From: Deltaproteobacteria bacterium
GTDB taxonomy: Bacteria > Desulfobacterota > Desulfobulbia > Desulfobulbales > Desulfobulbaceae
Direction: 5' to 3'
Assembly: GCA_024280455.1 (NCBI GenBank)
Contig: JAJRQC010000095.1
Coordinates: 1 to 64,000, forward strand
Length of the DNA stretch: 64,000 bases
Shown: piece after piece, positions 40,372 to 45,302 of the stretch
Layout: the number at the start of each line of letters is the position of its first letter
How positions within the stretch are numbered: the stretch's first letter is position 1
Made by a program: the position numbers and the translations under genes
Notes under the pieces: model-generated
Told to the model about the DNA's origin: nothing
The model's input: the letters and a program-made list of their open reading frames with translations, nothing else
The model's database searches: none

Positions 40372-40686
40372 TTACTGGACATGCACGGTTACCTCAAAAT
40401 GATCAATGGCCTCCTCGTCCCGTTCCCAGCGACGTTTGAGTTTGAGGCGAACAGGTGAGGTTCCTGTCGATCTTGCCAGTAGGGTAAAACATTTTTGACC
40501 GCCTTCTCCAAAGCCGCCCTCCCCGGCCGGTGAGTATTGCAGCCCTTGCACAGCCAGTATTTCAGCATCAAGCTCACCGATTTCCCATTGATAGCCGGTG
40601 GTTGGATTTTCTTTGAGACACAGGACAAGAGTTTCTCCAACCCTAAGCGTCCGTGTTGTCCCCCTGTCTCTTTCGGTGAGCGTCAT
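40372..40686 (-). CDS. Chagasin-type cysteine-protease inhibitor (I42 family)
   Basis: A 104-aa inhibitor fold. The I42 signatures are present: LKENPTTGYQWEI (the NPTTGY-W loop that enters the protease cleft) and a late LKLKRRWERD stretch corresponding to the RPW loop. These proteins block papain-family (C1) peptidases. There is no signal peptide, so it would act in the cytosol. ATG 40686 has GAGG at the right distance. It lies 700 bp downstream, on the same strand, of a papain-like peptidase gene, an obvious target. Confidence 0.9.
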   Translation of the reverse strand: MTLTERDRGTTRTLRVGETLVLCLKENPTTGYQWEIGELDAEILAVQGLQYSPAGEGGFGEGGQKCFTLLARSTGTSPVRLKLKRRWERDEEAIDHFEVTVHVQ

Positions 40687-40865
40687 ACTGTTAAACCTCA
40701 AGATGTTTCGTTCCTGAACAGGTTAAACTGTGTACTGTGCCCACTCAACTAAAAAACAAACACACCTCAGGCAACGCAAGCGCCGGATGGCTGCATTTCT
40801 GCAAAGCACTGAAAAACAACCATGGCGCTCCGTTACCCGGCACTGCCAGTTCAATCAGGACAGGC

Positions 40866-41279
40866 CTACCAGACGTACAACTCCTTAACCTGGCCGCTGT
40901 CCACCTTAAGGTTCACGGTGCTGCCCACCTGCTTTGCGTGCGCAGACAGCATGGTTAACGCGACAACAGCGGTATCGGAGTTGTTAGCCAGTTTCTTCCA
41001 TCCCAGCCCTGAAACCCCTATCCAGGAATTACGATTTTCATTCTTTGACCACAAACTTGTTATTTTTTTTCCCTTATGCCAGACAGCTGCGCCATAGGCC
41101 TCTTCATCTTTCTCTTCGGCAGCATATGCCGGCGGTACCTCAGATGGTATGGATGCTTCATCGGCGGCGGTAAACGGCATCACCCCTTCCAAAGGTGAAT
41201 CAACAGGCCTTGAGTCTTCCCCTGCAGTCATGGAATCTTCTTCTACCGGTGGAACCATTTTGGGTATTTCTTCGCTCAT
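40866..41279 (-). CDS. Small protein sharing the protease's C-terminal module
   Basis: A 137-aa protein in two parts. Residues 1-65 are acidic and Pro/Ala-rich and probably disordered. Residues ~66-137 are clearly homologous to residues ~297-367 of the papain-family protease encoded just upstream: both have a KKI-x2-LW stretch, N-R-N-(A/S)-W, the L-G-W-(K/R)-K tract, a helix ending in A-x-A-K and a final I/V-x-E-(I/L)-Y-V. I know of no name for this ~70-aa module. It has no Cys or catalytic residue, suggesting a binding, targeting or competitive role toward the protease. It may be co-transcribed with it (115 bp gap). Confidence 0.85.
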   Translation of the reverse strand: MSEEIPKMVPPVEEDSMTAGEDSRPVDSPLEGVMPFTAADEASIPSEVPPAYAAEEKDEEAYGAAVWHKGKKITSLWSKNENRNSWIGVSGLGWKKLANNSDTAVVALTMLSAHAKQVGSTVNLKVDSGQVKELYVW

Positions 41280-41394
41280 GGCATGAGCCTCCTTGCTTAT
41301 AATTAATTTGTCTCTTTGTCCCTGTCAACGGGCATGTTTTTCTCATCGATTGTTTGCTGATCATTCCGCTGACATGCTCTTCCAAATAGACCGT

Positions 41395-42498
41395 TTACAA
41401 TACATAGATCTCTGTGATAACCTTATTTTTCTGGTAAATATTGACCGGTCGATTGCCTGCTTTAGCGGCAATAAGCAGCGTCAGCATATCAAAGAAAATG
41501 TTGTCATTGGTGGAACTGATCTTTCTCCAGCCCAAATCTTTCACATAAACCCAGGCATTGCGGTTCGAGTTGTTTGTCCAAAGACCTATGATCTTTTTAC
41601 TTCGTTCCCAGCCGGTTTCTTCCACTTCTACAACCGCATCCATGGAACTGTCAATACCGCACTCACCATAGGCAATTCTGAAGTAACCATTCTCACCAAA
41701 ACCGCTGCCCCAGCTGTTTTTCATTATACAGTAGCCTTCCGCATCATTATACCCCACGCAGCAGACACAGTGACCACCGGCAACCCCACCGGAAACATGG
41801 CGATAGATGCCGCCGTTATAAGAAAAAAAGTCTTGATATACCGTGTAGCAGGCAACCAGCGGCCCCCGGGTTGAGAGCCAGTTTTGCATATCCCCGACTG
41901 CAGTAAACCTCTTCCATCCTTTAATTTTCACCAGCCGGTTTGACCAATTTGAGCATAGATTACACGTCTGATCCCCGGCACTGTACGGAAAACACGCGTC
42001 ATCAACAACGCCCTTGTCCCGGATAGCATCCAGGGCCTTACTCGGCCACCAGCCATTATTACATCTGCGGCCCTCGCTTCTGGCATGACAGTAAAAGAGA
42101 TGGGCCTCAGACAGGTTGATATTCAAATTCGAGTTGTTTCTCTGCCGTTTCAAACGCCCTTCCACGGTTGCAGCTGTACCAAAAGCCACACAGGAACCGC
42201 AGGATCCCTGATTTTTGACCGGTGTAATGTAATTTCTCCCACCCACATTCCGAAGGTCATACGAGGTTGGGTAGCCGATCCCCTTCTGGGAATCAGCCAT
42301 GATCGCCCCAAAATTTGCCCGTGCAATGGCCTCTCTTTCCAGTAGAGTCGGATCATCCGGGCCTGGTTCATAGCCAAGCAGAAGTGACTGCTCTTCCGCC
42401 GACATGACGGAAAAGGGTGTTTCTCCTGCTATCCAATCGGCCTGAACCTCGGATATTGCTTCCTGCACCGCCTTAACACTGAGTGTCTCGTCAGCCAT
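41395..42498 (-). CDS. Papain-family (C1A) cysteine protease with an extra C-terminal module
   Basis: A 367-aa protease. The papain active site is intact: Gln97 and Cys103 in VKNQGSCGSCVAF, His243 in GGHCVCCVGYND and Asn261 in KNSWGSGFG. Residues 1-75 form a helical propeptide-like segment (EEQSLLLGYEPGP). Residues ~297-367 are an added module repeated in the 137-aa protein downstream. There is no signal peptide, unusual for C1A enzymes, so it may act inside the cell or leave by an unknown route. ATG 42498 follows a near-perfect AGGAGGAG; the frame extends 23 codons further but without a site. Cysteine content is high (disulfide pattern CHARSEGRRC, CNLC). Adjacent genes encode an inhibitor of this very class and a BTAD regulator. 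Confidence 0.92.
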   Translation of the reverse strand: MADETLSVKAVQEAISEVQADWIAGETPFSVMSAEEQSLLLGYEPGPDDPTLLEREAIARANFGAIMADSQKGIGYPTSYDLRNVGGRNYITPVKNQGSCGSCVAFGTAATVEGRLKRQRNNSNLNINLSEAHLFYCHARSEGRRCNNGWWPSKALDAIRDKGVVDDACFPYSAGDQTCNLCSNWSNRLVKIKGWKRFTAVGDMQNWLSTRGPLVACYTVYQDFFSYNGGIYRHVSGGVAGGHCVCCVGYNDAEGYCIMKNSWGSGFGENGYFRIAYGECGIDSSMDAVVEVEETGWERSKKIIGLWTNNSNRNAWVYVKDLGWRKISSTNDNIFFDMLTLLIAAKAGNRPVNIYQKNKVITEIYVL

Positions 42499-42900
42499 AA
42501 TGCTCCTCCTGATAATTTTTAATCTTGACATCCCTGTCCGAACCAGGCGCGGAGACCGCTCACACATTTCCGTCCTGTTTTCCTGACGTAGATCCGAACC
42601 AGACCAGGAAGCAAAAACAGTGCGTATTCAGTCGCCCTCACCGGCACCAAATGGCTTTCAACTCCCTTTATGTGTGACACCCTGGAAAAACATGCTTTTT
42701 TCCCGAAATCAGAGACGAACAGGCTTCGAACCAGGACGAACAGGGCCGGAATACAATTTTTAGCATTGCCCCGAGATCAGGAAGACAGACAATTTTTCAG
42801 GAATGCCTCATGTTGATGTATCTAACAATGCCTGTAGTTACAAACAGGAAACAATTCGGTTACAAAGAGAAAAAATAAAGAAAAACTTTGGGGAGACAAC
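42499..42900. other. Intergenic region upstream of the protease gene
   Basis: About 400 bp with no gene on either strand. No strong promoter, repeat or terminator hairpin was recognised. It should hold the promoter of the protease gene and the end of the BTAD-regulator transcript. Confidence 0.5.
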
Positions 42901-44991
42901 TTAGGAAAAGATTCCCTTTGCCTGCAGGGCAAGGGATTGGAGATGGGATCTGGGCTGAAGCCCCGTATGCAAAAATATATTTTTTTCCGCCTTGTGGAAG
43001 ATTTCCAATGCATGAACGGGATAGCCGGTCCCTATAAAATGTTCCATCAGACAGACATAAACGTCTTCCTGCAGCGGCGCGACCTGGGCAGCCTTTTCCA
43101 GAAACAGCAGTTTATCGTCGTCCCTGACCCCATCCAAGGCCGCCAGGCGCAGGACTCCATCAACAAACAGTTTGCGGAGATGATCACGAAAAGAGAGAAT
43201 CCACGGCTCGTCATCATCGGGCAGAAAATCACCTTGATACAGGCTGAGAACAGGTAACAGCTGCTGTACATCTCCTACTCTGCCGGGGGTTTTAATATTT
43301 CTCTGAAAATCCAGGGCATCAATCCGGCAGACAGACTGCACAAGGGACACCCGTTTATGTTTCACAACCAGCCACTGGGCGCTGTGCGAAGACGTCCGGT
43401 CTCCGACCCGGCGCAGCCTTGACAGGGCTGTTTTTAAACTGTTTACCCCCCGGTCACCGTCACTGTCCGGCCAGAGCAAATAGGAAAGTCGTTCCAGGGA
43501 GATTTTTGTCCCTCCAAGGGCAATAATTGCCTTGAGGAGCTGTTTGGATCGCAGTCCTTTCCAGAATCTATCGTACACCGGTTCTCCATCCAGGGACAGA
43601 CAAAAACTTCCCAGTGTACACACTGTGACAGGGGGAATATGTGTCTCGGTGGCGGCTACTCCTGTCCTTGTTTTTGAAGGGAACAATGCCACCTCGATCT
43701 GATATATAAAATCTTTATCACGGTAGAGGGCAATCAAGCGCTCCCCCTGGGGAAGGAGTTCTCTCGCTTTTTTATAAAAAATACGCCCATTATCCACCTC
43801 GCCAAGACGAATGGAAATGGCGACGACTTCAAGAGCACCGGTGGCTGCAAACAGGCTGAAACCTTTATTCTGCCAACGGGGGATCCATTTTTTGAAGTGG
43901 GTAATGGCCTGTGCATATTCCCGGAGGCCGAATAAGGCCTGACCATGGATCAGCGCGGCAAGCGGGGCAATGATCGGGCTGCCGCTCATCTCGCCGCGTT
44001 GCCGGGCACGCTCACTGTGCAACAGCGCTTTGCGGGCATCACCAAGTCTCAGGGAAGCAATACCAAGGCAAAAGTGGACACAGGCAAGATGAAAATAATT
44101 ACATGGGGGGATGGTCTTCTCCATAATAAGTGTAGCGACCTCCTGCACCTTGACAAGCTCACCACTTACACAAAGGCCATAGAGGTAGTTTGTGTACAGG
44201 TGCAGATAAACCGACAGGGACAGCTTCTGCAGTTTCTCATCCTGAACAGTACGCTCCAGCAACTCTATCCCGATCCCGATTTCTCCCCTGATCACCTTGC
44301 ACAGCCCAAGACAGGATTGGTAGAGCAAGGCAGGAAGGGCAGGTATCCCGGCAAGTTTACTTAAGGGAAGACTCTCTGTCAGCAGCAACTCGGCTGAAGT
44401 CAGATCTCCAGCCCAGAAAGCACAGAATGCTGCTGTTGAGGCATGCAGGAGACGCAACGATACAGACCCGGACTTTTCGGCCCAGAATTGCTGGACGGTA
44501 TAGGGCATAACCGCCAGGGCGAGGTTGCCCTGACCGGTGAGTTCAGCCAGAGCCTTGTAACCGAGCAGTGAAGTTACGGCCAGGGGACTAGCCTCGTCAA
44601 TCCGTTTGAGCAGGAAATCGGCTCGGGGAAGCCAGAGATCATAACGCTGAAAATCCATGCCACTGGCCCAGATAGCACCGATTGCAGCACCGGTACAGGC
44701 ATACACCGCATCAAGATCATCCAACAGGAGAAAAGTGGCATAGGAAGTCTCATAGACATCCAGCGAAGGAGGTTTTGCCAATGTTTCCCGGAGAAACTGA
44801 AGCCGAGGCCGAGACGGCGCATCCCTGTGATCAGACTCGGCCGTCCCCTGAAGCAGCTCGGCAAGGGCATAGAGATCCATGTTGAACCAGGACACAAGAG
44901 CTGTCTGGGAGAGTTTATCCAGTTCCCTGGGACTCTTCTCAGAAGTTGACGACAGCATAACATGTGACCTGAAAAGTGATGGAAAATCCAC
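42901..44991 (-). CDS. BTAD-domain (SARP/AfsR-like) transcription regulator with TPR-type N-terminus
   Basis: A 696-aa regulator. Its C-terminal third pairs an OmpR-like winged helix (TLGSFCLSLDGEPV... LLKAIIALGG, LWPDSDGDRG) with a bacterial transcriptional activation domain (QRNIKTPGRV... LYQGDFLPDDDEPW... LRKLFVDGVLRLA). This is the arrangement of SARP/AfsR and of similar proteins in proteobacteria. The first ~450 residues are alpha-helical repeats (TPR/MalT-like), usually a signal-sensing part. No NTPase domain is visible, unlike AfsR or MalT. GTG 44991 is chosen because GGGAGGAG sits 7 nt upstream. It reads toward the papain cluster and is its likeliest regulator. Confidence 0.82.
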   Translation of the reverse strand: MDFPSLFRSHVMLSSTSEKSPRELDKLSQTALVSWFNMDLYALAELLQGTAESDHRDAPSRPRLQFLRETLAKPPSLDVYETSYATFLLLDDLDAVYACTGAAIGAIWASGMDFQRYDLWLPRADFLLKRIDEASPLAVTSLLGYKALAELTGQGNLALAVMPYTVQQFWAEKSGSVSLRLLHASTAAFCAFWAGDLTSAELLLTESLPLSKLAGIPALPALLYQSCLGLCKVIRGEIGIGIELLERTVQDEKLQKLSLSVYLHLYTNYLYGLCVSGELVKVQEVATLIMEKTIPPCNYFHLACVHFCLGIASLRLGDARKALLHSERARQRGEMSGSPIIAPLAALIHGQALFGLREYAQAITHFKKWIPRWQNKGFSLFAATGALEVVAISIRLGEVDNGRIFYKKARELLPQGERLIALYRDKDFIYQIEVALFPSKTRTGVAATETHIPPVTVCTLGSFCLSLDGEPVYDRFWKGLRSKQLLKAIIALGGTKISLERLSYLLWPDSDGDRGVNSLKTALSRLRRVGDRTSSHSAQWLVVKHKRVSLVQSVCRIDALDFQRNIKTPGRVGDVQQLLPVLSLYQGDFLPDDDEPWILSFRDHLRKLFVDGVLRLAALDGVRDDDKLLFLEKAAQVAPLQEDVYVCLMEHFIGTGYPVHALEIFHKAEKNIFLHTGLQPRSHLQSLALQAKGIFS

Positions 44992-45302
44992 GCGATCTCT
45001 CCTCCCATCAAAAAGTTCCATGCACAAAATAGAACAACGTATACTGATTAACTACCTTGAATGAACAGTTAATTCATCAAAAAACATACAGCTACCCTCG
45101 AACGTACAGGAGCAATTCCCGAAAAAAGACTGGGGGACAACATCAATACTCCTAAAACCACAGAAAAAAAGCACAGGCAACGAGGCCGACAATCAGGGCC
45201 GGCATCCAGATAGCGATCTCAATCCCGGGGTCAGGCCAATGGCCAGGGCATCAATGAAAGTAGCAATGGAGAGAAGAACCGTAACCGTTCACCAAAGAGC
45301 AA

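What the first reader, a model, noticed from the sequence alone, without database searches (positions are those of the whole stretch)
40372..42498. Papain-family protease encoded beside its own class of inhibitor
A C1A protease with intact Gln-Cys-His-Asn, a chagasin-type I42 inhibitor and a 137-aa protein carrying the protease's accessory module are on one strand within 2.1 kb. None has a signal peptide. The set resembles a protease/antidote unit working in the cytoplasm, or one exported by an unknown route. Bacterial C1A enzymes without a leader are uncommon.
Basis: partly seen in the sequence, partly recalled or inferred. Interest (0 to 1): 0.7.

Follow-up and report, generated by a model that had tools for sequence, protein, structure and literature searches.

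The report
Mobile leaderless protease–inhibitor gene cassette
Three neighbouring genes travel together between very distant bacteria and an archaeon: a papain-like protease with no export signal, a partner protein sharing the protease's toxin-B-subunit-like end domain, and a matching protease inhibitor. This gives bacterial chagasin-type inhibitors, whose natural targets are mostly unknown, a likely partner to test.

Summary
The window encodes a complete papain-family (C1A) protease, a 137-aa protein sharing the protease's C-terminal module, and a chagasin (I42) inhibitor, on one strand. The same three genes, in the same order, occur in five further unrelated places: an archaeal MAG, a Syntrophobacteraceae MAG, a Chloroflexota MAG, a short contig labelled Saccharibacteria, and a Deinococcus megaplasmid. 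Sampled relatives of the host genome lack them, so the set moves as a unit. The unnamed module, modelled at pLDDT 92, is an OB fold closest to B subunits of AB5 toxins and to the cytoplasmic crystal protein CipA. Every genome or record with the trio has exactly two modules: one on the protease, one free. In two Chloroflexota genomes the same pair is built on an unrelated leaderless protease, a matrixin, without I42. So the module pair looks like a fixed chassis with exchangeable protease cargo, and I42 like the cargo-specific antidote. Elsewhere in the host's phylum I42 is fused to or adjacent to C1A in 9 other places, but those proteases carry signal peptides. Best reading: a leaderless AB-like protease assembly silenced by its own inhibitor. 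Where it acts is open.

The parts
41395..42498 (-). C1A papain-family protease, 367 aa, no signal peptide; catalytic Gln97/Cys103/His243/Asn261; N-terminal ~75 aa pro-region
   Evidence: PF00112 E 2e-46; invariant catalytic residues; SD GGAGGAG at 42503-42509
41398..41622 (-). protease-type OB module, the C-terminal domain of the C1A protein
   Evidence: profile match; AF2 model pLDDT 92, OB fold b-b-b-a-b-b; VIA Z 11.6 to LT-IIb B and 10.3 to CipA
40866..41279 (-). module protein, 137 aa: low-complexity acidic/Pro-rich N-terminal ~65 aa plus C-terminal OB module; no signal peptide
   Evidence: E 2e-14 to the protease module; same gene in all six loci; SD GGAGG at 41288-41292
40869..41093 (-). 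free-type OB module (class-specific helix)
   Evidence: profile match; helix within-class identity 0.71, between-class 0.19
40372..40701 (-). I42 chagasin-family inhibitor; likely true start ATG 40686-40684 (104 aa)
   Evidence: PF09394 E 3e-20; NPTTG, GxGG and RxW loops; GAGG at 40696-40699
42901..45027 (-). possible regulator, TPR + BTAD protein upstream of the cassette; weakly linked (a BTAD gene is also upstream in L006, not in the other loci)
   Evidence: PF03704 E 2e-6; L006 BTAD E 5e-25; paralogue elsewhere in the genome

Best explanation
The three genes form one transferable unit. The C1A enzyme is made without an export signal, as a zymogen-like protein with an N-terminal pro-region and a C-terminal OB module of the AB5-B/CipA type. 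That module co-assembles with the free OB-module protein, through class-specific helices, into an AB-like complex: the module pair is the chassis and the protease the cargo. I42 is the cargo-specific antidote that keeps the papain-type active site blocked in or around the producing cell. Shown: the trio and its order, its joint inheritance, two modules per genome, module-type divergence, intact catalytic and inhibitory motifs, and the same chassis on a matrixin. Inferred: physical assembly, inhibition of this enzyme by this I42, and release or export followed by action on another cell or its proteins (somewhat likelier than action inside the producer).
For: Same trio and order in six records. 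Gene trees of the three proteins agree: window+L005 and L006+L007 pair in all. Every genome or record holding the trio has exactly two modules, one on the protease and one free. The module is absent from 394 other genomes of the host's phylum, and neither C1A nor I42 is found in sampled relatives of its family and order. The archaeal copy is flanked by Endo_dU, XPB and DUF790 genes and is 67% identical to the window's enzyme. Module fold: Foldseek E 2e-4 and Z 11.6 to LT-IIb B, Z 10.3 at 1.9 A to CipA. The module types split before the cassette spread (support 1.0), with divergence concentrated in the helix (identity 0.71 within, 0.19 between; p 1.6e-4); in CipA that helix forms the oligomer core (PMC9530169). 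Two Thermomicrobiales genomes carry a leaderless matrixin plus C-terminal module plus free module, without I42. C1A and I42 co-occur in the phylum (19 genomes, p 0.0015) and are fused in four frames.
Against: No inhibition, assembly or activity data exist. The AF2 model of the full protease failed (pLDDT 40, shallow alignment), so the domain arrangement is unseen. No module-sequence relative has a solved structure. There is no recognisable secretion gene in the cassette. AB toxins of known type have signal peptides and keep A and B on separate chains; here neither is true. Only eight loci carry the module pair, and most are MAGs.
Confidence: 0.5

Rival explanations
1. Intracellular regulated proteolysis or cell death: the OB modules act as sensor/adaptor, a signal frees the protease from I42, and it digests the cell's own or a phage's proteins, as in caspase-type bacterial immunity.
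For: No signal peptide on protease or module protein in any of six copies. I42 also leaderless in four of six. Two caspase-family genes follow the trio in Deinococcus. Sparse, mobile distribution.
Against: Inhibitor has an export-signal-like N-terminus in L006 and L007. No PADLOC model matches the trio. No NTPase or other known sensor partner is conserved. Caspases are in one locus of six.
Confidence: 0.25
2. CipA-like intracellular inclusion: the free module protein forms a crystalline or oligomeric scaffold that stores the protease, with I42 blocking leakage, for use at cell lysis.
For: CipA shares the fold (Z 10.3, rmsd 1.9, 71 aligned), a flexible N-terminal arm before the OB domain, and leaderless cytoplasmic location (PMC9530169). 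The free module protein also has a ~65-aa low-complexity N-arm.
Against: No sequence relationship to CipA is detectable. The matrixin-associated free module in L105 is a bare 73-aa domain without the arm. CipA's described role (crystalline inclusion of an insect-nematode symbiont) differs.
Confidence: 0.15
3. I42 is a defence against foreign (e.g. protist or host) C1A proteases, as with Pseudomonas syringae Cip1, and its place beside a C1A gene is incidental.
For: Cip1 inhibits plant proteases and most Pseudomonas lack C1A (PMC5014320). Most I42 genes in the phylum are not beside a C1A gene (36 of 46 places).
Against: Six of six trio loci keep I42 next to the protease, with congruent trees. 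C1A and I42 are fused or adjacent elsewhere in the phylum. I42 is leaderless in four of six copies.
Confidence: 0.08

Closest known systems
Papain family C1A (cathepsins, bacterial C1A)
   Same: Catalytic Gln-Cys-His-Asn; cathepsin C-like catalytic domain is the best solved match
   Different: No signal peptide; C-terminal OB module; dedicated module partner and I42 gene
Chagasin/ICP (I42), e.g. protozoan chagasin and Pseudomonas syringae Cip1
   Same: NPTTG, GxGG and R-x-W loops; leaderless like protozoan chagasins, which control endogenous C1A (PMC5014320)
   Different: Encoded beside a leaderless C1A in a mobile cassette; Cip1 targets host proteases and is secreted
AB5 toxins with a protease A subunit (subtilase cytotoxin, EcxAB; from general knowledge) and B subunits of LT-II type
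   Same: Protease cargo plus OB-fold B-like domains; heteromeric B rings exist in the PDB list (PltBd1/PltBd2)
   Different: No signal peptides; protease carries its own module; papain-type cargo; cognate inhibitor gene; no detectable sequence similarity to B subunits
CipA crystalline inclusion protein of Photorhabdus
   Same: OB fold with flexible N-terminal arm, cytoplasmic, no leader
   Different: No detectable sequence similarity; no protease or inhibitor partner known to me
Polymorphic-toxin papain-like toxins with immunity protein (Tox-PL1/Imm35, PMC3482391)
   Same: Papain-like cargo paired with a putative inhibitor/immunity gene; exchangeable cargo
   Different: Those use T6SS/T7SS/TcdB-type trafficking modules and other papain clades; chagasin is not mentioned there

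Membership tests
Peptidase family C1A | Gln-Cys-His-Asn catalytic set in a PF00112 domain | tested here: met
   PF00112 E 2e-46; Q97 C103 H243 N261 invariant
Peptidase family C1A | Proteolytic activity | not testable with these tools
   needs purified protein
Inhibitor family I42 (chagasin) | PF09394 domain with NPTTG, GxGG and RPW loops | tested here: met
   PF09394 E 3e-20; NPTTG, GEGG and RRW, i.e. Arg and Trp kept, Pro not (motifs from PMC5014320)
Inhibitor family I42 (chagasin) | Tight inhibition of C1A enzymes | not testable with these tools
   needs assay
AB5 toxins | B subunit OB fold | tested here: met
   module model, Z 11.6 over all 75 residues to LT-IIb B; predicted structure only
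AB5 toxins | Sec signal peptides on A and B chains | tested here: not met
   none on protease or module protein in six loci, starts backed by SD-like sequences
AB5 toxins | A and B on separate chains | tested here: not met
   protease carries its own module
AB5 toxins | Ring of five B subunits | not testable with these tools
   no multimer prediction available
CipA/CipB inclusion proteins | Leaderless, flexible arm plus OB fold | tested here: met
   PMC9530169
CipA/CipB inclusion proteins | Sequence relationship to CipA | tested here: inconclusive
   profile search of PDB chains, which include CipA 7xhs, gave no match; 17% identity by structure
Known anti-phage defence systems (PADLOC) | Match to a PADLOC model | tested here: not met
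   no hit for the trio

The most novel reading that the evidence does not exclude
A previously undescribed class of leaderless AB-like protease effectors: a fixed pair of B-subunit-like OB modules carries interchangeable protease cargo (papain-type or matrixin-type), each with its own control gene, and the whole cassette is transferred between bacteria and archaea. Bacterial chagasin here is the dedicated antidote of the papain version.
Probability: 0.35. Interest if true: 0.85.

Novelty: new variant of a known kind. Interest (0 to 1): 0.66.

Why it matters
The role of bacterial chagasins was described in 2016 as not yet elucidated (PMC5014320). A co-inherited protease–inhibitor pair, plus frames where the inhibitor is fused to the protease, makes that question directly testable. 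The module pair shared by two unrelated leaderless proteases would be a new way to build an AB-like protein from cytoplasmic parts, found in both bacteria and archaea. It would also give a toxin-B-like OB domain a setting outside classical secreted toxins.

Tried and rejected
Chance neighbourhood: rejected by six-fold conservation and congruent trees. Phage origin: no C1A hit in phage records, no module relative in viral contigs, and viral-contig C1A hits lack the module and I42. A known defence system: no PADLOC match. Direct mobile-element signs at the window locus: no tRNA and no convincing flanking repeats. Operon signals: promoter and terminator scans were near chance level. Full-length protease structure: poor model, not used. 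Viral structure library: no match at E 0.001 for the module. Sequence relatives of the module among solved structures: none credible. The upstream BTAD regulator as part of the cassette: found in only two of six loci and has paralogues, so kept as a weak lead. A viral-contig scan with the enlarged module alignment could not run because no stretch was conserved enough.

Full report
WHAT IS THERE. On the minus strand, in transcription order, the window holds a C1A protease (42498-41395), a module protein (41279-40866) and an I42 inhibitor (40686 or 40701 to 40372). The protease matches PF00112 at E 2e-46 and keeps Gln97, Cys103, His243 and Asn261. Its best solved relatives are dipeptidyl peptidase I and the cathepsins. 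The inhibitor matches PF09394 at E 3e-20 and keeps the NPTTG, GxGG and Arg-x-Trp loops that define chagasins and contact C1A enzymes (PMC2607524, PMC5014320). The module protein's last 70 residues match the protease's last 70 (36%, E 2e-14). Shine-Dalgarno-like sequences stand before the three starts, so absence of a signal peptide is not a mis-called start. The genome has no other C1A, I42 or module.

THE TRIO IS CONSERVED. One scan of bacterial and archaeal genomes found four loci with the protease. All four also carry the module protein and I42, in the same order and strand: L005 (Bathyarchaeota MAG), L006 (4.4 kb contig labelled Saccharibacteria), L007 (Syntrophobacteraceae MAG) and L008 (Thermomicrobiales MAG). 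A plasmid search added Deinococcus aetherius pDAETH-2 (L011). Protease identities to the window are 48-67%. The three protein trees agree on the well-supported pairs window+L005 and L006+L007. In L008 and L011 the module gene's ribosome site overlaps the protease stop codon. L005 is flanked on the same contig by Endo_dU, XPB and DUF790 genes, which supports a truly archaeal location. The L006 label should not be trusted, as the contig is short. The count is a lower bound, because the scan used short patterns from one sequence.

SPREAD BY TRANSFER. In 395 genomes of the host's phylum the module occurs only in the host. Neither C1A nor I42 occurs in the six sampled family members or the other sampled order members. 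The module is in 1 of 250 genomes of the archaeal group, 1 of 39 of the Syntrophobacteraceae order, and 1 of 400 sampled Chloroflexota besides a truncated match in L030. Such a patchy pattern with 67% identity between bacterium and archaeon is best explained by transfer.

THE MODULE. Neither Pfam, NCBIfam nor PDB sequence searches name it. AlphaFold2 gave a confident model (mean pLDDT 92) with order strand-strand-strand-helix-strand-strand. Foldseek's best hits are B subunits of type II heat-labile enterotoxin (E 2e-4). VIA-align gives Z 11.6 (2.7 A, 75 residues) for LT-IIb B, 10.3 (1.9 A, 71) for CipA and 9.9 (1.5 A, 63) for SilF. It is therefore an OB fold of the bacterial-toxin-B/CipA kind. 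CipA itself is a crystal-forming cytoplasmic protein with a flexible N-terminal arm, and its authors also found LT-IIB B as nearest relative (PMC9530169). A shared fold does not show shared function.

TWO MODULE TYPES. Every trio genome or record has exactly two modules, one on the protease and one free. Free modules form one clade (support 1.0). In the helix, identity is 0.71 within and 0.19 between types; in the strands 0.59 and 0.42 (Mann-Whitney p 1.6e-4). Six co-inherited copies keep two different helices on one common barrel. The helix forms the tetramer core in CipA (PMC9530169), so two distinct subunit positions in one assembly is a natural reading. This is inference; no complex was modelled.

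SAME CHASSIS, OTHER CARGO. In two Thermomicrobiales-order genomes (L104, L105) the module is the C-terminal domain of a matrixin metalloprotease (PF00413 E 1e-45 and 6e-54), with an N-terminal PG_binding_1 domain and a Cys-Gly motif like a cysteine switch. It has no evident signal peptide, and a free module ORF follows directly. No I42 is found there. So 'leaderless protease with C-terminal module, then free module' does not depend on the protease family, while I42 is present only with the papain-type cargo.

I42 AND C1A IN THE PHYLUM. In the same-size draw of 297 genomes, C1A is in 76 and I42 in 40; 19 have both (odds ratio 3.2, p 0.0015; genomes are related, so the p-value is only a guide). 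Of 46 I42 places, 10 lie within 1 kb of or inside a C1A frame, including the window. In four frames examined the I42 domain precedes the C1A domain in one polypeptide (L065, L067, L078, L081). All 28 examined non-trio C1A frames have a hydrophobic, signal-like N-terminus (a simple hydropathy test). A Streptomyces canus plasmid has a leaderless 1023-aa C1A with a leaderless I42 next to it and no module.

HOW IT LIKELY WORKS. Most likely the protease and free module assemble through their OB domains into an AB-like complex, and I42 keeps the active site blocked in the producer. In L006 and L007 the inhibitor has an N-terminal extension like a lipoprotein or signal peptide, which suggests that the enzyme reaches the envelope or outside in those hosts. 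That tilts the choice towards release or export over action purely inside the cell. The caspase neighbours in Deinococcus keep an intracellular role open. Neither destination is shown.

NOVELTY. Each part belongs to a known family or fold. I found no description of the combination in the open-access library searched; subscription papers were not covered. It works like an AB protein with antidote, but fails membership in AB5 toxins on signal peptides and chain layout.

Noticed in passing
L104:4231-5507 and L105:7012-8277: Matrixin metalloprotease with the same C-terminal OB module and a free module gene downstream; two small conserved genes follow (about 108-122 aa and about 145 aa), the second pair alignable at E 1e-6. 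They could be control genes of the matrixin version.
   Followed up: partly
L065, L067, L078, L081: I42 (chagasin) domain fused N-terminal to a C1A domain in one secreted-type polypeptide, as if the inhibitor served as a pro-domain.
   Followed up: partly
L012:1640-5078: Streptomyces canus plasmid: 1023-aa leaderless protein with C-terminal C1A domain and unnamed ~770-aa N-terminal part, next to a leaderless I42; a gene annotated as trypco2 family lies nearby.
   Followed up: partly
L011:7967-13104: Two caspase-family genes and a 323-aa protein directly downstream of the trio on the Deinococcus aetherius megaplasmid.
   Followed up: partly
L007:9640-10359: A 239-aa protein with hydrophobic segments sits between the module gene and I42 only in this locus.
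   Followed up: no
L030:1447-1659 (-): Truncated module-like stretch (27 positions, E 1e-4) in a Chloroflexota genome, not in an obvious gene; possibly a relic.
   Followed up: partly
window:30216-36470 (-): 2084-aa protein with a signal-like N-terminus and no Pfam family above cut-off.
   Followed up: no
window:42901-45027 (-): TPR/BTAD regulator upstream of the cassette; L006 also has a BTAD gene upstream, the other loci do not.
   Followed up: partly
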